Below, piece after piece: positions 7,661 through 63,454 of a stretch of DNA of 64,000 nt. The notes below the pieces were generated by a model. That model had not been told where the DNA came from. It saw only the letters and a program-made list of their open reading frames with translations, and ran no database searches. This DNA comes from Hypericibacter terrae (GTDB lineage: Bacteria; Pseudomonadota; Alphaproteobacteria; Dongiales; Dongiaceae). The position numbers were made by a program, and so were the translations under genes. The stretch covers positions 4,577,570-4,641,569 of the forward strand of contig NZ_CP042906.1 in NCBI RefSeq assembly GCF_008728855.1, written 5' to 3'. Every line of letters starts with the position of its first letter. The stretch's first letter is position 1.

Positions 7661-8857
7661 TTACGCGCGAACAGACAGTTCCGGGCGAGATTCACGTACG
7701 GTTTGTGTGGCTTTGAGCTCGCGATTCCGCCGCGCGACGCTGCCGGCCTCGGGCGCCGTCTCCTGGCCCGCGACCGGGATCGCCGCGCGGATCATGGACT
7801 GGAACTGCTGCACCCGGACTTCCTTGGCCGAGAGGATTCCGCTGCGATAGCCGCTGGAGCCCAGCCCCGCCTGCACGCCTTCCACCAGGCCCTTGTCCTC
7901 GGCGCCAACCAGACGGTTGATGCGCTGGTTGAGCCAGCGCGCCGCCTTCATTTCGCGCCGCGCATCCGGCAGCGCATAGGCCCGCGAGCGCGCGATGCAG
8001 CGACCCGGCGACAGCGGCAGGATCTGAAAGTAATCGATCTGGTCGGGATAGATGTCGAAGGCGAGGCTGGGGAACATGCTGTAATAGAGCCAGGCGCGCC
8101 GGCGATCCTCCGGCAGATGCTCGACCGGCGGCAGCAGCTTCAGGTAATGGCGTTCGCTCCAGCTGGGCGACGGGCGGTCGATCAGGCGGCCGCCGCCATG
8201 CGAGACGCCGAGCGGCTTCACCTCATAGCGATAGGTGGTCCCGTAAAGCCGCTGCAGGCCGGGATGGCCCACCGGCACATGATAGGCCTCGGAGTTGTTC
8301 TCGACCGCGACCTTCCAGTCGGCGGCGATCGGCGTATGGCTGTGCGGTCCCAACGGTTCCATCTCGGCGATGCGGTAGAAGCCCAGCGCCTCGCGATAGG
8401 GCTCGAACTGCTCGGCGATCGAGGGGCCGTCGCCACCGAAGCGGATGAAGACCAGGCCCAGAAAGATTTCCATCTCGACCGGCCGCAGCCCGTACTCGCT
8501 CTTGTCGAGGCCCGGGAAGCTGTCCTCGCTCGGCACGCCCATCAGCCGGCCGTCGAGATCGTAGAGGAAACCGTGATAGCGGCAGCGCACCGCGCGCCCG
8601 CAATTGCCCTGGTCGCCCTCGAGCAGCCGGAAGGCGCGATGGCGGCAGACATTGTGGAAGGCCTGCAGCCGGCCCTGTTTGTCGCGGAGCACGATGGCGC
8701 TTTCGCCCAAGAGATCGAAGCGCAGGAAATCCCCCGGCTGCTTCAGCTCGTTCACATGGCCGACCAGCTGCCAGGTCCTGCGAAAGATCGCCTCGCACTC
8801 GAGTGCGAAGAACTCGTCATTGGCGTAGATCCAGGCCGGCAGGGTGATGGGGATCAT
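7661..8857 (-). CDS. Rieske-type aromatic ring-hydroxylating oxygenase, alpha subunit
   Basis: A 398-aa oxygenase alpha subunit. The Rieske [2Fe-2S] ligands are C71-x-H73 (NVCRHRAF) and C92-x2-H95 (RCRYHGFLYD). The mononuclear iron site follows in ENNSEAYHVPVGHPG, giving H193 and H198. The acidic residue before the first His is the bridging position that couples Rieske and iron centres of neighbouring subunits. Such enzymes dihydroxylate or demethylate substrates using electrons from a reductase; related ones act on choline-like or aromatic compounds. No beta subunit, ferredoxin or reductase is adjacent, so the substrate cannot be assigned. The last ~45 residues are polar and look less conserved. 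It is followed on the opposite side by a TetR gene on the same strand. Confidence 0.9.
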   Translation of the reverse strand: MIPITLPAWIYANDEFFALECEAIFRRTWQLVGHVNELKQPGDFLRFDLLGESAIVLRDKQGRLQAFHNVCRHRAFRLLEGDQGNCGRAVRCRYHGFLYDLDGRLMGVPSEDSFPGLDKSEYGLRPVEMEIFLGLVFIRFGGDGPSIAEQFEPYREALGFYRIAEMEPLGPHSHTPIAADWKVAVENNSEAYHVPVGHPGLQRLYGTTYRYEVKPLGVSHGGGRLIDRPSPSWSERHYLKLLPPVEHLPEDRRRAWLYYSMFPSLAFDIYPDQIDYFQILPLSPGRCIARSRAYALPDARREMKAARWLNQRINRLVGAEDKGLVEGVQAGLGSSGYRSGILSAKEVRVQQFQSMIRAAIPVAGQETAPEAGSVARRNRELKATQTVRESRPELSVRA

Positions 8858-46843: not shown

Positions 46844-49800
46844 TCAGAGCGTACCGACCGCGACATCGCCCGCATCGAGGATGCCGCTCGTAACCTGGAC
46901 GGTTGCGATCTGCACCTCGAAGCCGTTGCCGGTATTGCCGTCGGTATTGACCCAGAGTTCGTTGCCGTTCTGGAACTGATAGCCGCTGTTGATCCCGCGA
47001 TCGACGGTCGCGGTGCCGAGCGCGTCGAACAATCCGTCCAGATCGATCTGGTCCTGATCGTCAGCGTTGAAACCCTGGATCACATCCGTCCCGGAGATTG
47101 CGCCGTCACGATACTCGACGCGATCGGCCGAGGAATCGAAGGCGCCCAGATCGACAAGGTCGCTGCCGTCGCCCGGTGCGATGACGTTGGCGCCGCTGCC
47201 ACCCTGGATGGTGTCATCGCCCGCACCACCGAGGATCGTGTCGTCGCCCTCCAGCCCATTCAAGACATTCGCGACGGCACTGCCCTGGATATAGTCGGTC
47301 TGATGCGAGCCGCGGACATCTTCGATCGAGACCAGCGTGTCGATCCCGCCGCCGCTGTCGATCGCCGTCCCGGCTGCCAGTGTATCCAATCCAACGATGA
47401 TGGCAGCATCGCTCAGATTGACCGTCACGCCACCGGCTTCCAAATGGTAGCGGACCTCGTCAGTGCCGCCGCCGCCATCGAGCAGGTCGTTGCCAGCGTC
47501 GCCGCGCAGGGTGTCGTCACCGCCGCCAGCGTAGAGGACGTCGTCGCCGTCATTGCCGCTCATCCAGTCGCCGCCGACGATCGTATCGCCGCCGAGATCG
47601 ACCAGGTTGCTGCTGCCATAGATCGTGTCGTCGCCGGCTCCCCCGCTCATGAGATCCCGGTAGCTTCCTTCGACGGTCTCCGTTTCCGCCGCCGTCGCCG
47701 CTCCGCCGCCGGAGATCACGTCGTCGGTCGCCGTCGTGAAGTCGCCGGTGATAAGCTCGCTCCAGGCTCCTTGCGCGCCGCCGATCAGGCCGGTCGGCGT
47801 GAAGATGATAGAGATCGACGGGTCATTGCCGTACCACAGATTGTCGGCGCCCAAATCGGCCTCGACATGAGCGATGCCATGGCCGGAGCCCGCATATTGA
47901 TCCTCGATCCGGACCGAGCCATCGAGAGCCCAGTCATAGGTGGAATCGGCAACGCCCGCGATCCAGAGATCGTTGCCGTCGCGCCACCAATCGATGTCAT
48001 AGACATAGCTGTCCGGATCGAACTGAAGAACATCCGCTCCGTCCGCGTCGACGATGATGTCGTCGCCCTCGCCGGGGGCGCGGACGAACCAGTCGGCTCC
48101 CGCGCCGCCAAGCAGCAGATCGGCGCCGCCGCCGCCCAGGATCGTGTCGCTATCGCCACCGCCCGTCAGCGTATCATCGCCGAAGCCGCCCTGGAGCCGG
48201 TTGATGCCGCCGTCGCCCACCACATTGTCGTTGTAGTCCGAGCCGACGATCCCTTCGATCGAGACATAGGTATCCGTGCCGCCATAGCCATCGGCGCCGG
48301 CACCGCCGGCGATGATGCTCGCCACCACATCGCCAGGCGCCTGGTCGTAATAGACGAGATCGAAGCCGCCTTCCCCGTTCAGGATGTCGTTGCCGGCCCG
48401 GCCTTGCAGGATGTCGTCGCCCTCGCCCGCCAGAATGGTGTCGTCCCCACCCTCGCCGACCAGCCAGTCATGACCCCATCCGGCAACGATGCTGTCGTCG
48501 CCGTCGCCGGCCCAGACATTGTCGTAATACCCGCCATTCCCGAGGATCGTGTCGCTGCCGTCGGTCCCCGGCAAGAGCTCGGCATAAGCGCCCTGGTCGG
48601 TGCCGACCAATCCGCCCGGAGTCACGAAGACAGTATAGTCGAGGCCGGTCTGATCGAGATCGTTGTACCAGGCGTTGTTCCAGTAACCGAGATCGATCGA
48701 GAAGCCATCGATGGCGGCGCCGGCATACTGGTCCCTGACGGTGACCGAGCCGGTTTCGCCGAAGTCGTAGTTGCCGTCGACCGCGCTGCCGATGACCAGA
48801 TCGTCGCCGACGCGCTGGTAGTGGAAGTCGTAGTAGAACGGCCCTCCGGTGAAGGCGACGGTGTCTCCCGCCGTTGCATTCTCGATGGTGTCGAAACCGT
48901 CGTCGAGGTAGCCGGAATGGAGATAGACATCGGCGCCGGCGCCGCCATCCGAGAGATCGTTGCCCGCGCCACCGACCAGTGTGTCGCCGCCGCCCCCGCC
49001 CCCGAGGGTATCGTCTCCGCCGCGCCCCTCGAGCCGGTTGTTGACAGTGTTGCCGGTGAGGTTGTCGGCCTGCTCCGAACCGCGCAGGCCCTCGATGCTT
49101 ACATAGCTGTCGATGCCGCCATAACCATCGTTGCTGGCGCCACCGGTTAGAAGGTTGGCGACGACACCGACAGTGGCGCGGTTGTAATAGACGAAATCGA
49201 AGCCGTTGCCGCCGATGAGAAGGTCGGCGCCTTCGCGGCCTTGCAGGATGTCGTCGCCATTGCCGCCATTGACGGTATCGTCGCCCTGGCTTCCGACCAG
49301 CCAGTCATTGCCCCAGCCGGCGACAATGCTGTCGTTGCCGCCATAGCCGAAAATCTCGTCGTGATACCCGCCATTGCCAAGCAGCGTCTCGCCGCCGCCG
49401 GTGCCTTGCAGAATCTCGGCATAATCGCCCTGGTCGGTACCCGTCAACCCGGCAGGCGTCAAGACGGTCACGTTGCCGCTGCCGACGACGCTGGGGTCGT
49501 TGTAGAAGATCGCGTCGTCATAGCCGAGATTGATCGTGAAGCGGTCGATCGCCGCCCCGGCATAGTGGTTCTTGATCGTGACAGACCCCGTATCGGCAAA
49601 ATCGTAATTGCTGTCGACGGCGCTGCCGATGACCAGATCGTTGCCGATGCGGTCGTAGTTGAGATCGAAGAAACCGGAACCGGTGAAGATCACGGCATCG
49701 CCCGCGGTGGCATTCGCGATCGTGTCAAAGCCGTCGGTCATGAACCCCGAGTGGAAATAGAGATCGGCGCCACCACCACCGTCGATACTGTCATTCCCTT

Positions 49801-52800
49801 CGCCGCCGATCAGCGTGTCGCCGCCGCCGCCGCCGGCCAGAGTGTCGTTGCCATTGCGGCCCTCGAGCCAGTTGCCGTTGCCATCGCCGGCCAGATTGTC
49901 GTCATGTGTCGAACCGATCAGCCCCTCGATACCGGTGAAGCTGTCGGTACCGCCCTGCCCGTCGTCGCTGGCGCCGCCGGCCGCCAGGCTGGCTGTCACG
50001 CCGGCCGTGGCACGGTGATACCAGACCAGATCGAAGCCGTTCCCGCCGATGAGGACGTCGTTGCCGTCGCGGCCCTGCAGATTGTCGTCGCCATTGCCGC
50101 CGTCGATCGTGTCGTTGTCCGCATTGCCGACCAGCCAGTCATTGCCGTCGCCGGCCACAATGCTGTCGTCACCCCCGCCGCCATAGATCTCGTCGTGATA
50201 GCCGCCATTGCCGAGGATGACGTCGGCGGCGGCCGAGCCTTGCAGAATCTCGGCGAAGGCCCCTTGATCGCTGCCGATGAGTCCACCGGGTGTCACGAAA
50301 ACCGCATAGTCGAGCCCGGTCAGGCTGGTGTCATTGTAGTAGGCGTTGTTGAGGAAACCGAGATCGATGGTGAATTTTTCGATCGGAGAACCGGCATAGT
50401 GATCCTTGATGGTCACCGAGCCCGTATCTGCGAAATCATAGTTGTCGTCGATGGCGCTGCCGATGACGAGATCGTTGCCCACGCGATCGAAATTGACGTC
50501 GAAGAAGAAGGGCCCTCCGGTGAAGGTGACGACATCGCCCGCAGTCGCGTTCTCAATGGTGTCGAAACCGTCGCTCAGATACCCGGAATGATAGTAGAGA
50601 TCGGCGTCCGGCCCACCATCGAGCCCGTCATTGCCGCTGCCACCGATCAGTGTGTCGGCACCGGGGCCACCTTGAAGCGTGTCGTCGCCCGCCAAGCCCT
50701 GAATCCAATCATCCCCGTCATGGCCCTGGATGCTGTTGGCGTTGGCGGTTCCCCGCAACACTTCGCTCCCCGTTACGCCACCCGGAATCTCGGTGGTCAC
50801 GGTGCCGGTTTCGATCGATCCCGGGGAGGCGCCCGAGATCACCACGCTGAAATCCTCAGTATTCTCGGGCTCCGTATCCGCGATCGCGTGGACCGTCAGA
50901 GTCTGCAGGGTCGCTCCGCCGCCGGTGAAAGTGAGCACCGTGGTCACGGCGTCGAAATCCACCCCCGAAACCGCGTCCGACGCGCCCCCGGGCGCCAATC
51001 CTGTCGCCACCGTGATCGAGGCAGTCACGCCCGTTGCCAGCGCCGCCCCGGCATAGCTGACCGTATAGCTGGCGTCGACACCCTCATTGACCTGGGCTGA
51101 TCCGGTAATCGCCCAGGCGAGGTTTGTGCCGTCATCGTCGATGATGTCTGTGGTCACCGTGCCGACGGCCACGGTGCCGATCGAAACCACACCGAGCGCG
51201 ACCTGATAATCCTCATTGGGCTCCACCACGGTGTCGTTGTTTGTGTGGACCGTCAGCGTCTGAGCTGTGGTGCCGCCACCGGCGAAGGTCAGGACAGTGT
51301 TGACATTGTTATAGTCGCTACCGCCGGTCGCATTCGGAGCGCCGCCTGCCGCGGTTCCGGTCTGCACCGTGACGAAGGCTGTTTGACCGGCGGCCAGCGT
51401 TGCGCCGCTATAAGCGACCGTGTAGGTGCCATCCGCCCCCTCGGTCAGCTGCGTCGTACCCGTGATCGACCACTGCAGGCTCGAAGCATCATTGTCGAGA
51501 ATGTTGGTCGTTGCCGTCGGCTGGGCGATGGATCCCGAGCTCTGGCCCGAGAGCTGGACCTGGTAATCCTCGGTGCTCTCGACCTGGGTGTCATTCTGGG
51601 TATGCACCGACACCGTCTGGGCCGTCGACCCGCCGCCGGTGAAGGTCAGGACCTGGGCGACCGAAGTATAGTCCGTGCCCGCCGTCGCATCGGGGGTGCC
51701 GTTTCCGGTGCTGCTACCCGTCGCCACCATGACGGTCGCGCTCTGGCCCAGGGCCAGCGTTGCGCCGCTGTAGGCGACTGTGTAGGTGCCATCCGCCCCC
51801 TCGGTCAGCTGCGTCGTACCCGTGATCGACCACTGCAGGCTCGAAGCATCATTGTCGAGGATGTTGGTGGTTACCGTCGCATTGACGATGGTCCCCGAGC
51901 TCTGGCCCGAGAGCTGGACCTGGTAATCCTCGGTGCTCTCGACCTGGGTGTCATTCTGGGTATGCACCGACACCGTCTGGGCCGTCGACCCGCCGCCGGT
52001 GAAGGTCAGCACCTGAGTGAGGGAGGTGAAATCCACGCCCGCCGTCGCATCGGGAGTCCCGTTTCCGGTGCTGCTACCCGTTCCCACCGTGATGGTCGCC
52101 GTCTGGCCAACGGCCAGTGTTGCGCCCGTGTAGCTCACCGTGTAGGTGCCATCCGCACCCTCGGTCAGCTGCGTCGTGCCGGTCACCGACCACTGCAGCC
52201 CCGAAGCGTCATTGTCGAGTATGTTGGTCGTCGCCGTTGGCTGGGCGATGGCCCCCGAACTCTGGCCCGAGAGCTGGACCTGGTAGTCCTCGGTTCCTTC
52301 GACCTGGGTGTCGTCCTGGGTGTGCACCGACACCGTCTGCGCCGTCGCCCCGCCGCCGGTGAAGGTCAGCACCTGAATGAGCGAGGTGTAGTCCACGCCC
52401 GCCGTCGCATCCGGAGCGCCACCAGCCGCCGTGCCCGTCGCCACCGTGATTGTCGCGGTCTGGCCGGCATCCAGCGTCACGCCCGTGTAGCTCACCGTGT
52501 AGGTGCCATCCGCACCCTCGGCCAGCTGCGTCGTGCCGGTGATCGTCCACTGCAGGTTCGAAGCATCGTTGTCGACGAGATTGGTCGTCGCCGTTGGTTG
52601 GGCGATAGTCCCCGAACCCTGGCCCGAGATCTGGACCTGGTAGTCCTCGGTGCCCTCGACCTGGGTGTCATCCTGGGTATGGACCGCCACCGTCTGCGCC
52701 GTCGCCCCGCCGCCGGTGAAGGTCAGCACCTGAGTGAGCGAGGTGTAGTCCACGCCCGCCGTCGCATCCGGAGCACCACCAGCCGCGGTTTCGGTCGCCA

Positions 52801-55800
52801 CCGTGACGGTCGCCGTCTGGCCCACGGCCAGTGTTGCGCCCGTGTAGCTCACCGTGTAGGCGCCATCGGCCCCCTCGGTCAGCTGCGTCGTACCCGTCAT
52901 CGACCACTGCAACCCCGACGCGTCATTGTCGAGGATGTTGGTCGCCGCCGTTGGCTGGGCGATAGTCCCCGAACTCTGGCCCGAGAGCTGGACCTGGTAG
53001 TCCTCGGTGCTCTCGACCTGGGTGTCGTCCTGGGTATGCACCAATACCGTCTGGGTCGTCGGCCCACCGCCGGTGAAGGTCAGGACCTGGGTGAGCGAGG
53101 TGTAGTCCGCGCCCGCCGTCGCATCCGAGGCACCGCCCGCCGCGGTTCCAGTCGCCACCGTGATGGTCGCGCTCTGGCCCACGGCCAGCGTTGCGCCGCT
53201 GTAGCCAACCGTGTAGATCGCGTCCGCCGCTTCATTGACCTGGCTCTGGCCGGTCAGGCTCCAGAGCAGGTTTGAGGCATCGTCATCGACGATCGCGGTG
53301 ACGGCGGTCCCCGACACGACCAAGCCGCTCGATGGCCCGCTGATCGCGACCTGATAGTCTTCGGTGCCTTCGACCAGACTGTCGCCGCTGGTATGCAGGG
53401 CGAGCGTCTGGGCTGTCGGATCGCCACCCGTGAATGTCAGGACGAGATTGACGGCGGTGTAGTCGCTCCCGCTGATTGCATCCGGCGTCGCGCCCGCGGC
53501 AATGCCGGTTTCGATCGTGACGACGGCCGTCTGGCCCGGCGCCAGCCCCGCGCCCGCATAACCCACCGTATAGACAGCATCGCCGCCTTCATCGACCGCG
53601 CTTGCGCCCGTGAGCGACCACAGCAGGCCGCCACCGTCATTGTCGACGATATCCGTGCCGGCCGTGCCGACGGCGATGGCGCCCGCGGAGGGACCGGAGA
53701 GCTGGACGCTGTAATCCGCCGTGCCTTCGACCACGGTGTCGTCGCTGGTCTGAACCGAGACGGTCTGCGCGGTCGGTCCTCCCCCGCTGAAGGTCAGAAC
53801 GACATCGAGGGCGGTGTAGTCGGTTCCGGAGACTGCGTCGGGAGTGCCGGCGTTGGTTCCCGGTCCGGTCGCGACCGTGACGACCACGCTCTGCCCCGGC
53901 GTCAGGACGGCGCCCGCATAGCTCACCGTGTAGCTGGCGACATTGCCTTCGACGACCTGCGCCTGCCCCGCGATCGACCAGGCGAGGTTCGACGCATCAT
54001 CATCGACGATTTCGGTGAAGACCGTAGCCGTCGCCACGCTCCCGGCGGAAACCGAACCCAGAGTGACCTGATAGCCCTCCGTTCCCTCGAGCAGCGTATC
54101 CTGAAGGGTCGTCACGTTGACGGTCTGATTCAGCGGGCCACCGCCGGTGAAGGTCAGGACGAATCCATCGCGGCTGGCGAAATCGACAGCTTCCGTCGCC
54201 GCGCCGCTGCCGGTCTGAAGGGTCGCGAAGGCCGACTGACCCGGCGCCAAAGCGGCGCCGCCATAGCTCACCGTATAGACAGCGGTGGCGCCCTCCCCGA
54301 CCTGTGTCGCTCCGGAAAGAGTCCAGACCAAACTCGACGCGTCATTGTCGAGGATGTTGGTGGCGGCAGTCGCAGCCACGATGGAGCCGCTCGACACCGG
54401 GCCGATCGTGACCTGATAATCCTCGGTGCCCTCGACCAGCGTGTCGTCGACCGTATGTACGGTCAGCGTCTGGGCCGTGGCGCCGCCGGCGGTAAAGGTG
54501 AGGACAATGTTCGCATTGTTGTAGTCGCTGCCGCCGATGGCATTCGGGGCGCCGCCCCCGGCCGCGCCGGTCTGCACCGTCACCGAGGCGGTCTGGCCGG
54601 GAGCCAGGGCAGCGCCCGAATAACCCACCGTATAGGTGGCGTCGGCGCCCTCATCGACCTGGGTCTGACCGACGATCGACCAACTCAGGTTCGACGCGTC
54701 GTCGTCGAGGATGACGGTGCTCACGGTCCCGCTAGCCACAGTGCCATGTGAAGGACCGGAGAGCTGGACGGCGTAATCTTCGCTGCTTTCGACCAATGTG
54801 TCGTCGACCGTCGCCAGGGACAGAGTCTGTGCGGTCGGACCGCCTCCGGTAAAGGTCAAGATCATGTTGACGGTGGCATAGTCGCTGCCACCGATGGCAT
54901 CGGGCGATCCGCTCGGCGCCGCTCCGGTCGCGACCGTGATCGTTTCTGTCACCCCGGGCAACAAGGTGGCGCCGCTATAACTCACCGTATAAACGGCATT
55001 GGCGCCTTCACTGAGCTGGCTCTGCCCCGAGATGCTCCAATGCAGATTGGTGACGTCACCGGCCTCCGGATTCTGATCCGCCACCGCGATGGTGAAGTTC
55101 TGGGTCGAGGGGGACGTTCCGCTGCTCGAAGCCTGGACCGTGATGACATGGCTGGTCGCGGACTCGAAATCCAAGAGCGCGCCGTTCGCCACCGTCACCA
55201 CGCCGCTGGTCGGATCGATTGCGAAACGTCCGCCGGCATCGTCCGTCAGGCTGTAGGTGACGGTATCGCCATCCGGATCGATCGCCAGGGCCGTCACCCC
55301 GACGATAGCGCCGTTGGCGGCATTCTCTGCGACTTGATTGTCGGCGGGGTTGGCATCGGTCGGCACCCCCGGCGGCTCGTTGACGTCTGCAACCCCGATG
55401 GTAAACGTCTGCTCCGAGGCGGCGCCGAACGGATCCGCCGCGTGTACCGTGATGTCGTGACTGGCTGCTGCCTCATGATCGAGCAAGGCGCCGTTGGCGA
55501 CGGTGACGACACCCGTCGCGGAATCGATCGCGAATCGGCCGCCCGCGTTGTTGGTCAAGGAATAGGTGACGGAGCCGCCATTGGGGTCCGTGGCTTGTGC
55601 CGTGAGGGCGACCGTCGTGCCGTTGGCCGCATTCTCTGCGACGCTGTTGGCATCCGCGTCGGAATCGACGGGTGTACTGGGCGGAAGATCGGCGATGGTG
55701 ACGGTGAAGCTCCGTGCGACCGTGTCGGAGCCGTTGGTCGCTTGCGCCGTGATGCTGTGGCTGGTCGCGGCCTCGGAATTCAGGAGCGCGCCGTCGGCCA

Positions 55801-57316
55801 CCGTGACCACGCCGGTGTTGGGATTGATCGCGAAGCGCCCGCCGGCGTCGTCGGTCAAACTGTAAGTGACCGTCCCCGTCAATTGCGGCGCGTTCACCGT
55901 GATGCCGACCGGCGCACCCGTCGCCGCGGCCTCGGCGATTTGGTCGCCCGTTCCGTTGGTATCGACCAGATCCGGCGGCGGCGGGGGTGGCTCGTTCTGG
56001 TCCGGTGGCGACGGAGGCGGCAGAACCTCGAACTGCGGGCCGGACGGCGATCCGGCGGTCGGCGGCAGCGAGCCGCCGGAACCGCTGCCACCACCACCCA
56101 AGGCACCCCCGCCCGCGCTGCCGGAGCCGGGGCCTTCGTCCGTTCCCGAGAGCGCACCCGTCTCGCCCTCGGGCGCCACGCCCGTGGGCGAGAAGAAAGC
56201 GAAATTGCCGCTGCCGCTGTCGCCCGCGACATTGCCGCTGCCCTCGCTCCCTGGCGAGCCCGCCGCCGTCTCGAACTGGGAGGCCTGCGCCGCCCCCTGG
56301 TCGCCGGGCTGGTCGTTCTCGCCCTTCTGCTGCTCTTGCGGCTGCTCTTGATGCGGCTGGTTGTTGTCGGGACTGGTCAGGGTGTGGGTGATGCTGGGTA
56401 CCACGCTTTGAATGGTGCCGACGCTCTTCAGCAGGGTGTCGCCGGGCTGCACCGAGAGGGACGGTGGGCTGTTCGGCGAAGTGAAGTCGATCGTCGAGCC
56501 GGCTTCGGACAGCTTGTAGGAATGGCCCGTATTGTCAGTAAAGGTGATGGATTCCTGCTCGGGGTCGTTGTCTTGCACGACCCAGGCTTTGACCGCGCCC
56601 TCCGGCGTTACGTCGCCGCCACCCGTCGTTCCACGGATGCCGATACTGCCAGCCGGAGTGGTGATCACCATGCCATCGCCGGATGCGGGCGCTATCGCAC
56701 CGGTGATGAACACAAAGGCGCCGGTGACAACGGAGATCCCAAGTCCGTTGTCGCTCCCCGCAGGGTCATAGATCAGCTTGTCGATCGCTATTCGCCCGTT
56801 GTCGGCCAACGCGAAGGTGGTCTTGTCTACGAACTGGATGTTGATGGCGCTGCCGTCGCCGGTCTCGACGATGTCGTTGAGATAGATCGGGCTGCCGACG
56901 GCGAGCGGTCCGGTCACACCATTGGGATGCGTGACAGTTGCGCTGCCGGTGATGGCATGGACCTCGCCGATCGGATCGCCGAGGCCGCTCGTCTCGGTGC
57001 CTTGCGCCAATTGCGTCGGAACGGAAGGTGCCGACAGCAGCCCGACGAGCCAACCGGGAACAAGCGCACCGTCGAAACTCACCAGCTCGACGGGTTGCGC
57101 GGCGGAGAAGTAGTGCTGAATGAGGACCGTCTCGCCATTAGCGAGATGAACCACGAGATCGTCGCCCAAGTGGACGAAGTCGGCGTGCAGCAAGGCCTCT
57201 GCCGGCCAGGGCAGCTTGCCGTCGAAACTACGGGCATCGAGAACGAGCGAAGCGGATTCTCGCGCATCGTCGCTTGATGTCAGGCCATTATCGCCAGACG
57301 TTCCCTCGGTAAGCAT
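46844..57316 (-). CDS. Giant RTX/Calx-beta/cadherin-like adhesin with FecR domain (3490 aa)
   Basis: A 3490-aa type I secreted adhesin. From the N-terminus: a FecR-like domain (~115-210, TTPAGSIGIRGTTGGG), a low-complexity Gly/Pro/Glu region, three cadherin-like repeats (~455-750, TYSLTDDAGGRFAI), twelve Calx-beta-like repeats of ~118 aa (~755-2180, each ending D-D/N-DAS), and RTX nonapeptides (~2185-3400, GGxGxDxxx) in four larger ~280-aa modules. It ends with a type I secretion C-terminal target region. Ca2+-loaded RTX repeats fold after export through an ABC/MFP/TolC channel, none of which is in the window. It probably stays on the cell surface for biofilm or host contact. AAGGGGAAG precedes ATG 57316. 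Confidence 0.92.
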   Translation of the reverse strand: MLTEGTSGDNGLTSSDDARESASLVLDARSFDGKLPWPAEALLHADFVHLGDDLVVHLANGETVLIQHYFSAAQPVELVSFDGALVPGWLVGLLSAPSVPTQLAQGTETSGLGDPIGEVHAITGSATVTHPNGVTGPLAVGSPIYLNDIVETGDGSAINIQFVDKTTFALADNGRIAIDKLIYDPAGSDNGLGISVVTGAFVFITGAIAPASGDGMVITTPAGSIGIRGTTGGGDVTPEGAVKAWVVQDNDPEQESITFTDNTGHSYKLSEAGSTIDFTSPNSPPSLSVQPGDTLLKSVGTIQSVVPSITHTLTSPDNNQPHQEQPQEQQKGENDQPGDQGAAQASQFETAAGSPGSEGSGNVAGDSGSGNFAFFSPTGVAPEGETGALSGTDEGPGSGSAGGGALGGGGSGSGGSLPPTAGSPSGPQFEVLPPPSPPDQNEPPPPPPDLVDTNGTGDQIAEAAATGAPVGITVNAPQLTGTVTYSLTDDAGGRFAINPNTGVVTVADGALLNSEAATSHSITAQATNGSDTVARSFTVTIADLPPSTPVDSDADANSVAENAANGTTVALTAQATDPNGGSVTYSLTNNAGGRFAIDSATGVVTVANGALLDHEAAASHDITVHAADPFGAASEQTFTIGVADVNEPPGVPTDANPADNQVAENAANGAIVGVTALAIDPDGDTVTYSLTDDAGGRFAIDPTSGVVTVANGALLDFESATSHVITVQASSSGTSPSTQNFTIAVADQNPEAGDVTNLHWSISGQSQLSEGANAVYTVSYSGATLLPGVTETITVATGAAPSGSPDAIGGSDYATVNMILTFTGGGPTAQTLSLATVDDTLVESSEDYAVQLSGPSHGTVASGTVSTVILDDDASNLSWSIVGQTQVDEGADATYTVGYSGAALAPGQTASVTVQTGAAGGGAPNAIGGSDYNNANIVLTFTAGGATAQTLTVHTVDDTLVEGTEDYQVTIGPVSSGSIVAATAATNILDNDASSLVWTLSGATQVGEGATAVYTVSYGGAALAPGQSAFATLQTGSGAATEAVDFASRDGFVLTFTGGGPLNQTVNVTTLQDTLLEGTEGYQVTLGSVSAGSVATATVFTEIVDDDASNLAWSIAGQAQVVEGNVASYTVSYAGAVLTPGQSVVVTVATGPGTNAGTPDAVSGTDYTALDVVLTFSGGGPTAQTVSVQTSDDTVVEGTADYSVQLSGPSAGAIAVGTAGTDIVDNDGGGLLWSLTGASAVDEGGDAVYTVGYAGAGLAPGQTAVVTIETGIAAGATPDAISGSDYTAVNLVLTFTGGDPTAQTLALHTSGDSLVEGTEDYQVAISGPSSGLVVSGTAVTAIVDDDASNLLWSLTGQSQVNEAADAIYTVGYSGATLAVGQSATITVATGTAAGGASDATAGADYTSLTQVLTFTGGGPTTQTVLVHTQDDTQVESTEDYQVQLSGQSSGTIAQPTAATNILDNDASGLQWSMTGTTQLTEGADGAYTVSYTGATLAVGQTATVTVATETAAGGAPDATAGVDYTSLTQVLTFTGGGATAQTVAVHTQDDTQVEGTEDYQVQISGQGSGTIAQPTATTNLVDNDASNLQWTITGTTQLAEGADGTYTVSYTGVTLDAGQTATITVATGTAAGGAPDATAGVDYTSLIQVLTFTGGGATAQTVSVHTQDDTQVEGTEDYQVQLSGQSSGAIAQPTATTNILDNDASGLQWSVTGTTQLTEGADGTYTVSYTGATLAVGQTATITVGTGSSTGNGTPDATAGVDFTSLTQVLTFTGGGSTAQTVSVHTQNDTQVESTEDYQVQLSGQSSGTIVNATVTTNILDNDASSLQWSITGTTQLTEGADGTYTVAYSGATLALGQSATVMVATGSSTGNGTPDATAGTDYTSVAQVLTFTGGGSTAQTVSVHTQNDTQVESTEDYQVQLSGQSSGSIAQPTATTNILDNDASSLQWSITGTTQLTEGADGTYTVAYSGATLAAGQTAFVTVQTGTAAGGAPNATGGSDYNNVNTVLTFAGGGTTAQTLTVHTNNDTVVEPNEDYQVALGVVSIGTVAVGTVTTDIIDDDGTNLAWAITGSAQVNEGVDASYTVSYAGAALATGVTASITVATGLAPGGASDAVSGVDFDAVTTVLTFTGGGATLQTLTVHAIADTEPENTEDFSVVISGASPGSIETGTVTTEIPGGVTGSEVLRGTANANSIQGHDGDDWIQGLAGDDTLQGGPGADTLIGGSGNDGLDGGPDADLYYHSGYLSDGFDTIENATAGDVVTFTGGPFFFDVNFDRVGNDLVIGSAIDDNYDFADTGSVTIKDHYAGSPIEKFTIDLGFLNNAYYNDTSLTGLDYAVFVTPGGLIGSDQGAFAEILQGSAAADVILGNGGYHDEIYGGGGDDSIVAGDGNDWLVGNADNDTIDGGNGDDNLQGRDGNDVLIGGNGFDLVWYHRATAGVTASLAAGGASDDGQGGTDSFTGIEGLIGSTHDDNLAGDGNGNWLEGRNGNDTLAGGGGGDTLIGGEGNDSIDGGGGADLYFHSGFMTDGFDTIANATAGDAVIFTGSGFFDLNYDRIGNDLVIGSAVDSNYDFADTGSVTIKNHYAGAAIDRFTINLGYDDAIFYNDPSVVGSGNVTVLTPAGLTGTDQGDYAEILQGTGGGETLLGNGGYHDEIFGYGGNDSIVAGWGNDWLVGSQGDDTVNGGNGDDILQGREGADLLIGGNGFDFVYYNRATVGVVANLLTGGASNDGYGGIDSYVSIEGLRGSEQADNLTGNTVNNRLEGRGGDDTLGGGGGGDTLVGGAGNDLSDGGAGADVYLHSGYLDDGFDTIENATAGDTVAFTGGPFYYDFHYQRVGDDLVIGSAVDGNYDFGETGSVTVRDQYAGAAIDGFSIDLGYWNNAWYNDLDQTGLDYTVFVTPGGLVGTDQGAYAELLPGTDGSDTILGNGGYYDNVWAGDGDDSIVAGWGHDWLVGEGGDDTILAGEGDDILQGRAGNDILNGEGGFDLVYYDQAPGDVVASIIAGGAGADGYGGTDTYVSIEGIVGSDYNDNVVGDGGINRLQGGFGDDTLTGGGDSDTILGGGGADLLLGGAGADWFVRAPGEGDDIIVDADGADVLQFDPDSYVYDIDWWRDGNDLWIAGVADSTYDWALDGSVRIEDQYAGSGHGIAHVEADLGADNLWYGNDPSISIIFTPTGLIGGAQGAWSELITGDFTTATDDVISGGGAATAAETETVEGSYRDLMSGGAGDDTIYGSSNLVDLGGDTIVGGDWMSGNDGDDVLYAGGGDDTLRGDAGNDLLDGGGGTDEVRYHLEAGGVTVNLSDAAIIVGLDTLAAGTAIDSGGGIDTLVSIEDVRGSHQTDYIQGSAVANVLNGLEGDDTILGGAGDDTIQGGSGANVIAPGDGSDLVDLGAFDSSADRVEYRDGAISGTDVIQGFNADDQDQIDLDGLFDALGTATVDRGINSGYQFQNGNELWVNTDGNTGNGFEVQIATVQVTSGILDAGDVAVGTL

Positions 57317-58712: not shown

Positions 58713-59561
58713 TCAGGGATACCAAGTCGCGTGGCAGGCGTCGGCGTGGAACCGCTCCCTGAGCTTCGGCGCGCGCACATTCTCGTGCTGGTATTCGCAT
58801 TCCTGCCTGCAGGCATCGTTCGTGCAGGCAGACTGGCATTGCTGCGATTCCACGAAGCTCTTGTTGTAGAGGCGCTCGAAGGTCAGGCGCTCCATGTCGG
58901 AGCAATCGATCGGCGTTCGATCGATCACGCTCTCAGGCGGCGCCGCGGGCGCCGTTGACGGGGGCGCCGGCGCCTCGTCATAGGGCGGCGTCACGATCAT
59001 TGGTGCCAACGGCAACGCCGTCGTCACCGGCTCCGCAGGGTCGGGCGCAAGGGCGGGCGACGGTGACGGCTCCGCCGGCGTCGGCGAGGTCATCTCCGGC
59101 AACGGCTGGGACGTTGTCGGCGCCGCGGGCAACGAGGTTTCGGCCGGCGCTGCCGGGGCCGGCGGCGGCTGCGCCGGCGTCGCCGGCGTCAACGTCGACA
59201 GCGGCTGGGACATGGTGGGAGGCGCCGGCAGCGAGACTTCGGCCGGCGCTGCCGGCGCCGGGGTGGTCACGCCCTCCGGATGCGCATTCTGCTCCTGCGT
59301 GAGCGCGTCGCGTGCCTGCCAGTCGAGGCCTTGCGGGCAATCGCCATAGTCGTACCAGACACCGACCTCGCAGCGGAGCATGCGACCGCGATAGCAGAGC
59401 AGCGTGCCATGCTCCCATTGATTGATGCGGGTCACGCCGTTCTCGATCTCGACCAGGGGGCGAGTCAGATAGGGGCATTCCGAGTCAGCCTCTGCCGGGC
59501 TCACGCCCCCGGGAGAAAGGGCGAGGGCGCCGATCAGCCAGAACGCACGACGAAACTTCAT
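58713..59561 (-). CDS. Hypothetical secreted protein, Pro/Ala-rich with Cys-rich C-terminus
   Basis: A 282-aa protein. A signal peptide (FRRAFWLIGALALSPGG..AEA) is followed by a Cys-containing domain (LLCYRGRMLRCEVGVWYDYG then DCPQGLDW). A ~110-residue linker of Pro/Ala/Thr repeats (APAAPAEVSLPAPPTMSQPL, repeated with variation) follows, then a Cys-rich end (SQQCQSACTNDACRQECEYQ) with probable disulfides. ATG 59561 with GAGGCGAC just before it; the longer upstream frame is unlikely. It follows the flagellin-protease gene on the same strand after 187 bases that include a candidate terminator. No family recognised; an envelope or secreted role is inferred. Confidence 0.8.
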   Translation of the reverse strand: MKFRRAFWLIGALALSPGGVSPAEADSECPYLTRPLVEIENGVTRINQWEHGTLLCYRGRMLRCEVGVWYDYGDCPQGLDWQARDALTQEQNAHPEGVTTPAPAAPAEVSLPAPPTMSQPLSTLTPATPAQPPPAPAAPAETSLPAAPTTSQPLPEMTSPTPAEPSPSPALAPDPAEPVTTALPLAPMIVTPPYDEAPAPPSTAPAAPPESVIDRTPIDCSDMERLTFERLYNKSFVESQQCQSACTNDACRQECEYQHENVRAPKLRERFHADACHATWYP

Positions 59562-59693
59562 GTCGCCTCGAGATACCAAAGCCAAGCTGCGGACGCCCGC
59601 CATGAGCGGGCCCGCCACAAGAGGATAAAGCCGAAACGGGGGTCGCCAAGGGGCGCGGACGCGGCCGGACACCGCCGGCTGCCGCTGCCCGGG

Positions 59694-59720
59694 AAAAGCC
59701 ACCGGGCGCGTCAGGCCCGG
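59694..59720 (-). terminator. Candidate terminator after the flagellin-protease gene
   Basis: On the minus strand CCGGGC / GCCCGG (59720-59702) forms a hairpin followed by TGGC and TTTT. It lies 29 bases after the stop codon. The stem is only 6 bp and the T run short, so this is moderate. Confidence 0.5.
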
Positions 59721-59748: not shown

Positions 59749-61827
59749 CTACTGTAGCAGGTTCAGCAGATCGTGCTGGCGCATATTGCCCTGGACCGAC
59801 ATCGCGACGCCGACCTGGACCAGCACCTTGCGCGAGGTCGCCACGATCATCTCGGACGCCATGTCCAGATCGAGCAGCGCGCTACGGGCCGCTTCGCTGT
59901 TCTCGACCGTGGTCGCGATGTTGGCGGCGGCGAAATCCAGCCGGTTGAGCGAGGAGCCGAGGCCCGCCCGCGCCTTCACCAGCCGGTCCATCGCGGTGTC
60001 GAGGGCATCGATCGCGCCGGTCGCGTTGGCGAGGCTGTCGACCGTGCTCAGATGAAGGCCCAGATTGTAGCTGCTGATGGCATCGAGCGCGACGCCGATG
60101 CGGTCGGAGCTGCCGGTGTCGCTGGCGACCTTGATCGAGTAGTTGCGGTTGGTGGGCGCATTGATGCTGCTATAGACCGTGGTCGGATCGAGCAGGTTGG
60201 CGACGACGGTCCCCTTGCCACCGCTGTTGACGGTCATGTCGCCGCCGGCGCCGATGCCGATGTCGATCTGGATCTGCGGCAGGCTGGCGCGGGCGAGATC
60301 GACGATGCCCTGGCCCCAGGTCTTGTCGGCTCCCGCCTGCCCCATATCGCGGGCGGTCGAGGTGATGAGATTGGTGATCTCCTTGCCGCTCAGATTGGGG
60401 AACAGGCTTTCCAGCACCGCGGCGGCACCGGCGACCAGGGGCGCCGCCATCGAGGTGCCCGACATGTAAGCGAGGCCGCCGCCGACATAGGTCGAGAGGA
60501 TGTTGACGCCCGGCGCATCGACGGTCGCATCCTTGGCGATGCCGGCGAGGTTCGAGAAGCTCGCCATGTGATCGAGGAAGTCGGTGGCGCCCACCGCCAG
60601 CATCGAGCCGTCGGCATTGGGGTCGATCGCATATTGCGCCGGCCAGAGCGGGCTCTCGCCCGAGGAATTGCCCGAGGAGGAGATGACCACCACGCCCGCC
60701 GCGACCGCGGCTGCGATGGCGGTGTTCTCGGCCGCGCTCGGCGCGGTGCCGCCGAGGCTCATATTGATGATCTTGGCGCCCTGGGCGACGGCGTAGTTGA
60801 TGGCGGAGGCCACATCGTTGGGATTGATGCCGCCGCCGCTCGCGGTCTGGATCACCTTGATCGGCAGGATCTTGGCCTGGAAGGCCACGCCTTGCGTACC
60901 GGCACCGTCATTGACCGCGGCGATGATGCCTGCGACATGCGTGCCATGGCCACCCTCGGCGGCGTTGTCGTCCATCGGATTGGCGTCGCCGTCGGCGATG
61001 TCGGTACCGGCGAGGAGGTTGGCCGCGAGCTGGCTATGGCCGGTATCGACGCCGCTGTCGATCACCGCCACGGTGATGCCGTTGCCCGACCCGCTGGTAC
61101 CGTAGGCAGCAGCCCGCGCATAGGCAGTCGAGGCATGGATGATGCCGAGCCCGCCCGAGATCCTGTATTCCGCATCCTCGAAGGCGGCGGCGCTGCCGGC
61201 GCCGGCGATGGTGCCGAGCGCGTTGCCGTCCTGGTCGGAGACGCTGACGATCAGCCGGTCGGTCACGCCGCTGCCGTCATTCTCATAACTGATGCGGCCG
61301 AGATCGAGATCGGTCTGGGTGAAGCTGTCGCCCAGGGCGAGGGCCACGCCGTCGCGCTTGACGACGCCATGCGCGACATCGCCGCGCAGCGTGTAGGTCG
61401 CGCCGGCATAGCCGACCAGGGTCTGGCCGTTGAACTCGGTCGCGCCGGAGATCCGGTCGATCTCGTCGCGCAGCGCCACATATTCGGTGTTGATCATCGC
61501 CCGCTCGGTGCCCGAGAGCTGGCCCGAGGAGGACTGCACCGCGAGCGACTTCATGCGGTCGATGATCGAGGTGACCTTCGCCATGGCGCCGTCGGCGATC
61601 TGCACCATCGAGGCGGCCTGCCCGGCATTCACGCCCGCCTGGCGCAGCGCCTGGACTTTGGAATTGATGCGCGAGCCGATGGCCATGGCGGCGGCATCGT
61701 CCTTCGCGGAAACGACCCGCGAGCCGGAGGAGAGCCGGGCGACCGAATTGGTGAGGGCCGCGTCGCTTGCCGCCAATTGGCGATTCGCGATCTGCGATGC
61801 GAAATTGAAGGTAACCGTGAGGGCCAT
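59749..61827 (-). CDS. Flagellin with inserted subtilisin-like (S8) serine protease domain
   Basis: A 692-aa chimera. Residues 1-~165 are a flagellin N-terminal domain (MALTVTFNFASQIANRQLAA, then VARLSSGSRVVSAKDDAAAM and DEIDRISGATEFNGQTLV). Residues ~605-692 are the flagellin C-terminal domain ending NMRQHDLLNLLQ. Between them, residues ~228-520 are an S8 domain: D257 (VAVIDSG), H294 (GGHGTHVAG), oxyanion N387 (SSSGNSSG) and nucleophile S459 (YMSGTSMAAP). All catalytic residues are intact. There is no signal peptide, consistent with export through the flagellar apparatus. The start ATG 61827 has GGAG 7 bases upstream. An assembled filament would carry proteases on its surface; that is inference. 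No other flagellar gene lies in the window. Confidence 0.92.
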   Translation of the reverse strand: MALTVTFNFASQIANRQLAASDAALTNSVARLSSGSRVVSAKDDAAAMAIGSRINSKVQALRQAGVNAGQAASMVQIADGAMAKVTSIIDRMKSLAVQSSSGQLSGTERAMINTEYVALRDEIDRISGATEFNGQTLVGYAGATYTLRGDVAHGVVKRDGVALALGDSFTQTDLDLGRISYENDGSGVTDRLIVSVSDQDGNALGTIAGAGSAAAFEDAEYRISGGLGIIHASTAYARAAAYGTSGSGNGITVAVIDSGVDTGHSQLAANLLAGTDIADGDANPMDDNAAEGGHGTHVAGIIAAVNDGAGTQGVAFQAKILPIKVIQTASGGGINPNDVASAINYAVAQGAKIINMSLGGTAPSAAENTAIAAAVAAGVVVISSSGNSSGESPLWPAQYAIDPNADGSMLAVGATDFLDHMASFSNLAGIAKDATVDAPGVNILSTYVGGGLAYMSGTSMAAPLVAGAAAVLESLFPNLSGKEITNLITSTARDMGQAGADKTWGQGIVDLARASLPQIQIDIGIGAGGDMTVNSGGKGTVVANLLDPTTVYSSINAPTNRNYSIKVASDTGSSDRIGVALDAISSYNLGLHLSTVDSLANATGAIDALDTAMDRLVKARAGLGSSLNRLDFAAANIATTVENSEAARSALLDLDMASEMIVATSRKVLVQVGVAMSVQGNMRQHDLLNLLQ

Positions 61828-62020
61828 GGCGGCCGTCTCCAACTACTTGTCAGAGGTTCAACCCGTGTCATTCCCGCGCCTACTTGGCCCGGGGAGGCAG
61901 AAGCTAGTGGCGAACCGCCAACAAAAGGTTGACGATCCTCCATCTTCGGGGGCGGCGGCGCGCCCGGGGAATGAAGTAATCTCTTCCTAATCATAAGTTC
62001 CGAGGGAATCCGCCCCCGCG

Positions 62021-63454
62021 ATGCCCATCCTGTATGCGACCCATACATCCCCTGGCTATATGGATCCGCCGCGCCTGTCGGCCGACCAAGTGGTCTGCGG
62101 TCCGGCACGCCCCGATCGGAGCGACGGCGATCGGGTGGTCTCGCTCCAGACGGCGCTCGGCAGCTACGACCTCGCCGCGGTCGTCGACCGCCTGCCGGCC
62201 GCGCAGCGTCCCGATCTGGTGGTGGTGCGGGCAGATGCGACGCGGCGCAACCGGCCCGGCAATCTCGCCGGCGTCCAGGCGCGGCGCGTGCTCCTGATCG
62301 GCGACACTCATCATGGCCGCGCGCCGATCGCGGGCCTCATCCGCTATGCGAAATCCGAGCCCTTCGATCTGATCCTGCTCGACTACACCCGCCAGCATGG
62401 CCATTTCTTCCTCGAAGCGGGCTTGCGCCCGGTCCACTGGCTGCCCGCCTTCGCCATCGATCCGCCGCCCGTGACCGGCCTGCCGGAGCCGCGCCGCGGC
62501 CTGACCTTCCTCGGCCAGCTGGGCGATCATCACCGGCAGCGGCGGCTGATGATCGACCGGCTCATCGAGGCGGGCCTCACGCCCGAGCTCTTCATGGCGA
62601 AGGGAGCGGCGGGCCAAAATCTTCATGCCGCCTCGACCGTCGCCTTCAATTGCAGCCTCAATGGCGATCTGAACCAGCGGGTGATCGAGGTGCTGGCGGC
62701 GGGCGGCTGCCTCTTGACCGACCGGCTGGCGCCGCAGGCGGGGCTCGAGCTGCTGTTCGAGCCCGGGCGTCATCTTCGGCTCTATGACGGGCCGGAAGAT
62801 CTCGTGTCCCAGGCGAAAGCGCTGCTCGCCGATCCGGCGCAGGCCGCCGCGATCGCCGCTTCGGGCAAAGCCCGCTACGACGAGGCTTACAGCCGTGGGC
62901 CGGTCATGGCGGAGTTTGCCGCCCTGCTCGAAGGGCGCGACGGGCGCCCGGCCCATGCGCTCGCGCGGGATCCGCGCTGTGCCAAGCCCGCGCCTGTCGC
63001 TCCCGAAGCCCTCGAGGCGCGCCTCGCGCTCTATCAGGGGCTGCAGGAGCTGCATCGGTTGGAGCCCGCCTTGTCGGTGCTGTTTGCCGGCGAGGCCGAT
63101 CCCGACAGGGTTTCCGACGCGGTCGACCTGCCGCGCCTCGCGGTCTCGGTCGAGCCGGGGCTGGGCGCCTCGGCGCGAGAGGCGATCGGACGGCTGACGG
63201 CACCGGGACAGGTGACGACGCAGGCGGCGGAAGGCCGGCGCTGGGATGTGATCGTGGCCTCGAGCGCCTGGCTCGCGGCGGCCGGCGGCAACGCCTTCCT
63301 GGCGCGGCGGCCCCGCGCGCTGGCGCTGACGGATCGCCTGGCCGATCCGCGCGCGCCCGGCGACGCCCCCGCCGGCTTCACGCCCTGGCGGTCCTTCCCG
63401 GGGCTGCTGCTGTCGCCCGAGCTCGTGCCGGTCGCGCGCGCGAAACCCGACTGA
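62021..63454 (+). CDS. Glycosyltransferase (Glyco_trans_1_2 / CgeB-like)
   Basis: A 477-aa GT-B-type enzyme. The recognisable part is the C-terminal segment RRGLTFLGQLGDHHRQRRLM, FNCSLNGDLNQRVIEVLAAG, GCLLTDRLAP and ELLFEPGRHLRLYDGPEDLV, typical of the Glyco_trans_1_2 domain found in spore- and flagellin-modifying enzymes. The last ~110 residues look like a separate, diverged region. It is divergent from the flagellin-protease gene with 193 bases between starts, so modification of that filament is a fair guess. The ribosome site before ATG 62021 is weak. Confidence 0.8.
   Translation: MPILYATHTSPGYMDPPRLSADQVVCGPARPDRSDGDRVVSLQTALGSYDLAAVVDRLPAAQRPDLVVVRADATRRNRPGNLAGVQARRVLLIGDTHHGRAPIAGLIRYAKSEPFDLILLDYTRQHGHFFLEAGLRPVHWLPAFAIDPPPVTGLPEPRRGLTFLGQLGDHHRQRRLMIDRLIEAGLTPELFMAKGAAGQNLHAASTVAFNCSLNGDLNQRVIEVLAAGGCLLTDRLAPQAGLELLFEPGRHLRLYDGPEDLVSQAKALLADPAQAAAIAASGKARYDEAYSRGPVMAEFAALLEGRDGRPAHALARDPRCAKPAPVAPEALEARLALYQGLQELHRLEPALSVLFAGEADPDRVSDAVDLPRLAVSVEPGLGASAREAIGRLTAPGQVTTQAAEGRRWDVIVASSAWLAAAGGNAFLARRPRALALTDRLADPRAPGDAPAGFTPWRSFPGLLLSPELVPVARAKPD

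What the first reader, a model, noticed from the sequence alone, without database searches (positions are those of the whole stretch)
59749..61827. Flagellin carrying a complete subtilisin (S8) protease in its variable region
Flagellin N- and C-terminal domains flank a full S8 peptidase with intact D257, H294, N387 and S459. Known proteolytic flagella (flagellinolysin) carry an unrelated metallopeptidase in the same place. A serine-protease version would be an independent invention of an enzymatically active filament. The reading frame is continuous, the junctions are in linker regions, and the gene has its own ribosome site, so it is not a gene-fusion error in appearance. This is the best candidate for an undescribed system here.
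Basis: partly seen in the sequence, partly recalled or inferred. Interest (0 to 1): 0.95.

Follow-up and report, generated by a model that had tools for sequence, protein, structure and literature searches.

The report
Flagellin with a built-in subtilisin protease
A bacterial gene (likely from a soil species) encodes a flagellin, the protein that builds the swimming filament, with a complete subtilisin-type protein-cutting enzyme in its middle; 51 database proteins, this one included, combine the two and keep the enzyme's key residues wherever the sequence covers them, so these flagella are predicted to be serine-protease counterparts of the known metalloprotease flagella.

The parts
59749..61827 (-). 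S8-flagellin gene, 692 aa
   Evidence: ORF and translation; Pfam architecture
61836..61840 (-). Shine-Dalgarno-like GGAGA, 8 nt before the ATG
   Evidence: sequence; the block up to the ATG is conserved in H. adhaerens, there as GGGGG
61417..61806 (-). Flagellin_N (D0/D1 N-terminal helices), residues 8-137
   Evidence: Pfam PF00669 E 2.6e-31; predicted helices 2-99 and 106-129
61228..61395 (-). cadherin-like (Cadherin_3) module, residues 145-200
   Evidence: Pfam PF16184 E 6.4e-5, below cut-off here; matched in 42 of 42 full-length members at E<=1e-3
60277..61176 (-). subtilisin fold, residues 218-517
61057..61059 (-). catalytic Asp D257
   Evidence: D in 48 of 48 covered rows of 51
60946..60948 (-). 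catalytic His H294
   Evidence: H in 49 of 49 covered rows of 51
60667..60669 (-). oxyanion-hole Asn N387
   Evidence: N in 51 of 51
60451..60453 (-). catalytic Ser S459 in SGTSMA
   Evidence: S in 51 of 51
60013..60282 (-). beta-rich connector, residues 516-605, evolving fast
   Evidence: dN/dS 0.72 against 0.21 for the S8 core; strands between 518 and 582 in the model
59755..60012 (-). Flagellin_C (D1/D0 C-terminal helix), residues 606-691
   Evidence: Pfam PF00700 E 1.4e-13; helix 599-691

Best explanation
This is a flagellin in which one ancestral insertion likely placed a subtilisin without a detectable I9 propeptide, together with a cadherin-like module, into the outer variable region; the protein is predicted to be exported unfolded through the flagellum and built in as a minor subunit that displays active serine protease on the filament surface. 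Shown: the architecture, the intact catalytic residues in every family member that covers them, purifying selection on the S8 core, the predicted complete subtilisin fold, and a flagellar export gene with ordinary flagellins in the host. Inferred: export and polymerisation (from the conserved D0/D1 helices); outward display (from the insertion point, where D2/D3 lie in other flagellins, recalled); catalysis (from the residues and fold). Mechanistic proposal: a classical subtilisin matures by cutting off its I9 propeptide just before the catalytic domain (recalled), and in a flagellin that cut would sever the N-terminal stem. No I9 domain is detected here, in the 42 full-length members, or in five alphaproteobacterial S8 relatives tested, so this S8 lineage would fold into an active enzyme inside an intact flagellin chain after leaving the export channel. 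The substrate is unknown; general extracellular protein digestion close to the cell is my guess.
For: Pfam architecture, repeated in 42 of 42 full-length members. Catalytic residues kept in all covered members, although distant members are down to about 42-51% identity. dN/dS window vs H. adhaerens (own Nei-Gojobori script): Flagellin_N 0.12, S8 core 0.21, Flagellin_C 0.10. Model pLDDT 83.6; S8 region matches mature subtilisins from their residue 1 to about 275. Of 101 D0/D1 columns at least 95% conserved in 117 ordinary flagellins, P0001 keeps 87; the family median is 86%, range 75-94%, plain flagellins going down to 73%. S8 domains fall on one side of a branch, SH-aLRT 98 (27 of 51 sampled); flagellin halves do not reject one clade, p-AU 0.65. 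Zero cysteines in all 51, as in 106 of 107 plain flagellins, whereas 28 of 91 near S8 proteins are Cys-free throughout. Host has FlhA, two ordinary flagellins, FliS, FliD, FlaG and a hook-type gene. No I9 domain by Pfam.
Against: No experiment. The gene is not in the flagellar locus and its neighbours differ between lineages. It lacks the sigma-54-like site seen at the two ordinary flagellins, so co-expression with the filament is not shown. Fourteen of 101 strongly conserved D0/D1 positions are changed, eight in the N part and six in the C part, so polymerisation might be altered. One of four S8-flagellin genomes (G394, 130 contigs) shows no FlhA and one rod-type hit only, though it has one further flagellin. 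Many other S8 domains are Cys-free too (34 of 85; 50 of 91), so the domain-level Cys signal is modest. Absence of I9 does not exclude another kind of propeptide: 8 of 120 listed S8 hits carry PF22148, which I recall as a propeptide-like domain, though none of the 42 full-length S8-flagellins matches it. The orientation of S8 to the stem was not measured (no PAE or coordinates given).
Confidence: 0.68

Rival explanations
1. The flagellin ends serve mainly as a flagellar export ticket: the protein leaves through the flagellum and is released as a soluble or self-cleaved protease without lasting assembly into the filament.
For: The gene is unlinked to the flagellar locus and lacks the sigma-54-like site of the ordinary flagellins; six conserved C-terminal positions are changed; the connector 516-605 evolves fast, as a cleavable linker might.
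Against: Both D0/D1 halves, not only one export region, are under strong constraint (dN/dS 0.12 and 0.10), and a family median of 86% of strongly conserved flagellin positions is kept.
Confidence: 0.15
2. The S8 domain is a catalytically silent outer domain used for filament stiffness, adhesion or antigenic variation.
For: Outer flagellin domains are often structural or binding modules (recalled); no activity was measured.
Against: Catalytic residues and oxyanion Asn invariant in all covered rows of 51; the full mature-subtilisin fold is predicted.
Confidence: 0.07
3. The protease acts on the filament itself, trimming co-polymerised ordinary flagellins or shedding filament in response to a signal.
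For: Minor autocatalytic activity is reported for flagellinolysin filaments (PMC5595980, passage).
Against: Nothing in the calls points to a filament substrate; purely inferential.
Confidence: 0.06
4. A rarely or never expressed orphan gene, kept by chance in Hypericibacter.
For: Rare: full-length in 3 of 385 genomes of the class sample and 2 of 17 in the order; no known promoter type recognised.
Against: Purifying selection, a deep family with no catalytic loss seen, conserved upstream blocks between two species.
Confidence: 0.04

Closest known systems
Flagellinolysin (gluzincin metallopeptidase flagellin, Eckhard et al. 2017, PMC5595980; Hylemonella gracilis 2020, PMC7643111)
   Same: A peptidase in the flagellin variable region between D0/D1 halves; conserved catalytic motif across a family; in C. 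haemolyticum a less abundant subunit beside an ordinary structural flagellin, with active filaments (section 6 and passages of PMC5595980).
   Different: Metallopeptidase with HExxH, most common in Firmicutes and Beta/Gammaproteobacteria and scattered by lateral transfer. Here an S8 serine protease of an unrelated fold, members placed so far in Alphaproteobacteria, no HExxH, one S8 branch.
Free-standing subtilases of Alphaproteobacteria (L100-L103, L064) and their relatives
   Same: Same S8 domain with a similar leader (F..AEY....GL..I.A..AY...G.G) before the catalytic Asp, no I9 domain by Pfam; nearest S8 loci found by the genome searches.
   Different: No flagellin parts; 766-891 aa with a long C-terminal part without Pfam match, autotransporter-like only by eye; two cysteines in the S8 domain in these five. 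Four of the five were scanned with NCBIfam: T7SS mycosin and autotransporter peptidase EprS models match below their cut-offs.
Mature subtilisins (Savinase, BPN', thermitase)
   Same: Fold over residues 218-517, 36-40% identity in the top rows, catalytic residues.
   Different: Classical subtilisins carry an I9 propeptide and a Sec signal (recalled); no I9 is detected here.
Ordinary flagellins of the same genome (3.907 and 3.912 Mb)
   Same: D0/D1 helices.
   Different: Open frames of 409-440 aa, no enzyme domain in the one scanned; sit in the flagellar locus with sigma-54-like sites.

Membership tests
Bacterial flagellin | Flagellin_N and Flagellin_C domains over curated cut-offs at the two ends | tested here: met
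   109 and 51.4 bits against 26.6 and 23
Bacterial flagellin | Conserved D0/D1 core positions and helices | tested here: met
   87 of 101 conserved columns kept; helices 2-99, 106-129, 599-691
Bacterial flagellin | Genome encodes flagellar export machinery | tested here: met
   FlhA in G000; across the four S8-flagellin genomes 3 of 4, G394 none found
Bacterial flagellin | Assembles into filaments | not testable with these tools
   needs filament proteomics
Peptidase family S8 (subtilase) | Asp/His/Ser residues and oxyanion Asn in S8 motifs | tested here: met
   D257, H294, N387, S459; invariant where covered in 51
Peptidase family S8 (subtilase) | Complete subtilisin fold | tested here: met
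Peptidase family S8 (subtilase) | Serine-protease activity | not testable with these tools
   bench assay needed
Flagellinolysin (metallopeptidase flagellin) | Peptidase domain in the flagellin variable region | tested here: met
   S8 between Flagellin_N and Flagellin_C
Flagellinolysin (metallopeptidase flagellin) | Zinc-binding HExxH gluzincin motif | tested here: not met
   no HExxH in the 692-aa sequence (by eye); Pfam finds only S8 and the cadherin-like module between the flagellin ends
Flagellinolysin (metallopeptidase flagellin) | Filament-associated proteolysis | not testable with these tools
   bench assay needed

The most novel reading that the evidence does not exclude
Alphaproteobacteria invented the enzymatic flagellum a second time: a subtilisin lineage that needs no I9-propeptide cleavage was dropped into a flagellin, so the enzyme switches on simply by folding after flagellar export, and the filament becomes a long rotating array of serine protease.
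Probability: 0.55. Interest if true: 0.85.

Novelty: new variant of a known kind. Interest (0 to 1): 0.7.

Why it matters
In the papers I saw, only metallopeptidase flagella have been shown to be enzymatic. An S8 version would show that enzymatic filaments arose more than once with unrelated enzymes, would give a simple rule for which proteases can be grafted onto a filament (no propeptide cut in the chain), and would offer a filament enzyme that serine-protease inhibitors such as PMSF should switch off. A named species (Hypericibacter adhaerens, with an 86% identical protein) carries it, so it can be tested directly.

Tried and rejected
Gene-fusion or assembly error: rejected, because 51 distinct proteins have the S8 + flagellin combination. 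Genomic linkage to flagellar genes: looked for and not found in the stretches scanned from H. adhaerens, G230 and G394. Known promoter: no sigma-54-like site. Best mismatches and simple dinucleotide-block shuffles that reach them: window gene 4 (958 of 1000), H. adhaerens 3 (428), G230 3 (300), G394 4 (907); ordinary flagellins 2 (50) and 1 (3). Sigma-28-like sites all had 5 or more of 16 mismatches (6 in the window gene); both consensus motifs are recalled. Cysteine loss as proof of flagellar export: weakened when I widened the comparison from the five nearest S8 loci (2 Cys each) to 85 and 91 other S8 domains, of which 34 and 50 are Cys-free. Saturation of the family at 47: suggested, but the S8-only search found four more (P0157, P0159, P0165, P0166), so 51 is a lower bound; candidate lists were capped near 8000 and only the best 120 listed in all three searches. 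First flagellin-half tree (FastTree, 42 S8 and 117 plain) and the quick tree (42 S8 and 56 of 117 plain) broke the S8 group by one long-branch plain flagellin (L061); the AU test did not reject one clade. Of 95 S8 ORFs in loci only the best 50 were printed; there the flagellin motif showed only in loci of the four known genes. Class and phylum genome searches scored at most two candidates per genome, so misses are possible. The PDB, VIA-align and viral lists filled with subtilisin-type matches and say little on the flagellin or cadherin-like parts. A possible role of the divergent glycosyltransferase (62021-63454): conserved in H. adhaerens (70% identity), no tblastn match in the fetched flagellar-locus or G230/G394 stretches, so left as speculation.

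Full report
What is there. The finding is confirmed at the stated coordinates. The minus-strand ORF starts at ATG 61827 behind a GGAGA and ends at 59749, 692 aa. Pfam finds Flagellin_N (8-137), Peptidase_S8 over the full 288-position model (248-507) and Flagellin_C (606-691), all above the curated cut-offs, plus a Cadherin_3 match (145-200) slightly below its own. Sequence search of solved structures gives subtilisins (best a Savinase variant, 1ndu, E 4e-39, residues 239-512) and flagellins (9lrz, E 4.3e-35, best stretch 5-138) for the respective parts.

Which organism. The window lies in a 5,894,118-base single-contig genome. The nearest named proteins are 97% (a partial Hypericibacter MAG protein) and 86% (H. 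adhaerens FRZ61_40810, named hypothetical protein by one source and Flagellin by another) identical, and G014, in the same genus as the window's genome, has the contig length of the H. adhaerens record. So the host is a Hypericibacter species (Alphaproteobacteria, Rhodospirillales, Dongiaceae; lineage). This is an inference; that it is a soil organism is recalled.

A family, not a one-off. A single-protein search lists 47 proteins, the window's included, with S8 and at least one flagellin end. A profile search lists the same 47. A search with the S8 part alone adds four. The count of 51 is a lower bound, since candidate lists were capped. Alignment A1 holds 42 of them; P0007, P0008, P0013, P0046 and P0047 were left out as shorter, and the last four came later. 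All 42 match Flagellin_N, Cadherin_3, Peptidase_S8 and Flagellin_C at E<=1e-3. Over the 51, D257 is kept in 48 of 48 covered rows, H294 in 49 of 49, N387 in 51 of 51 and S459 in 51 of 51; the missing cells belong to P0013, P0046 and P0157. In whole genomes full-length copies occur in 2 of 17 genomes of the order, both one genus, in 3 of 385 of a class sample (own, G230 and G394, the last two one genus of another family), in 2 of 11 of G230's order and in 1 of 398 of a phylum sample, the window's own genome. G230 has the 3' end of a second copy, cut by a contig end.

Origin. In a tree of S8 domains with 65 near non-flagellin S8 domains, the 27 S8-flagellins sampled lie on one side of a branch (SH-aLRT 98); a wider tree with all 42 gave 77. 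The flagellin halves need two label changes because of one long-branch plain flagellin, and one clade is not rejected (p-AU 0.65). This fits one insertion followed by joint descent. Near the branch are free-standing subtilases, several alphaproteobacterial, that share a leader of the type F..AEY....GL..I.A..AY...G.G ahead of the catalytic Asp. The window protein and the four relatives scanned (L100, L101, L102, L064) match the NCBIfam models for T7SS mycosin and for autotransporter peptidase EprS, all below the cut-offs. No I9 propeptide is reported by Pfam in the window protein, in the 42, or in the five alphaproteobacterial relatives scanned. Eight of the 120 hits listed carry PF22148, which I recall as another propeptide-like domain, so propeptide-bearing cousins may exist.

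Context. The genome has a regular flagellar locus around 3.86-3.93 Mb with two ordinary flagellins, FlaG, FliD, FliS, rod and hook-type genes and FlhA. The S8-flagellin stands about 0.7 Mb away beside a divergent glycosyltransferase and a Pro-rich orphan, both with counterparts in H. adhaerens; in G230 and G394 the scanned neighbours are amidohydrolase and IspA genes and others. The ordinary flagellins have sigma-54-like sites (2 and 1 mismatches); the S8-flagellin has none. FlhA was found in 3 of 4 S8-flagellin genomes; the fourth (G394, 130 contigs) has one further flagellin but only one rod-type hit. The two S8-only genomes tested (G067, G377) show no FlhA.

How it most likely works. I commit to a co-polymerised minor subunit with active subtilisin on the filament surface, as in flagellinolysin, where the metallopeptidase flagellin is the second most abundant filament protein beside a structural flagellin and sheared filaments cleave peptides (PMC5595980, section 6 and passages). 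The step special to this system is inferred: a classical subtilisin cleaves itself between I9 propeptide and catalytic domain (recalled), which in this position would cut the flagellin's stem, and the lineage that was inserted shows no I9 domain, so the chain can stay whole. Activity, incorporation and substrate are untested.

Comparison and novelty. It is a flagellin and an S8 domain by every sequence feature tested here. It is not a flagellinolysin, since the zinc motif is absent, although it is predicted to work like one. In the listings of open-access full-text searches I saw no paper on an S8 or subtilisin flagellin (searches found no paper with all terms, one search listed 15 of 223 and 15 of 18). 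PMC5595980's Table 1 (top ten of 61 domain types) lists gluzincin, M26 and sialidase among others, not S8; its supplement was not available, and subscription papers are mostly not covered. PMC7643111 was seen in listings, in the start of its abstract and in a term search without hits. I therefore call it a new variant of a known kind.

Noticed in passing
46844-57316 (-): A 3490-aa putative adhesin with 12 Calx-beta, 3 cadherin and 10 RTX stretches and a weak BapA prefix. In H. adhaerens (L107) only a methyltransferase gene lies between the acyl-CoA dehydrogenase and the ureidoglycolate-lyase-like gene, while in the window the adhesin lies between such genes, so it looks like a roughly 10.5 kb gain or loss.
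   Followed up: partly
62021-63454 (+): Glyco_trans_1_2 glycosyltransferase divergent from the S8-flagellin, 70% identical and in the same place in H. adhaerens; might modify the flagellin, untested.
   Followed up: partly
58713-59702 (-): Pro/Ala-rich 329-aa orphan without Pfam match downstream of the S8-flagellin; two stretches (43-166, 265-329) are conserved in H. adhaerens.
   Followed up: no
L108 11569-13065 (own genome near 3.897 Mb): A C-methyltransferase (Methyltransf_13/14, sugar-type by recall) between the FlgL-like gene and the flagellins, a hint that the ordinary flagellins may be glycosylated.
   Followed up: no
P0020, P0028, P0034, P0039, P0044 and relatives (809-815 aa): A subgroup of S8-flagellins carries about 100 extra residues inside the S8 domain between the catalytic Asp and His; not analysed.
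   Followed up: no
L110 7117-7851 (G230 contig 124): The 3' end of a second S8-flagellin in the same genome as L098, cut off by the contig end.
   Followed up: no
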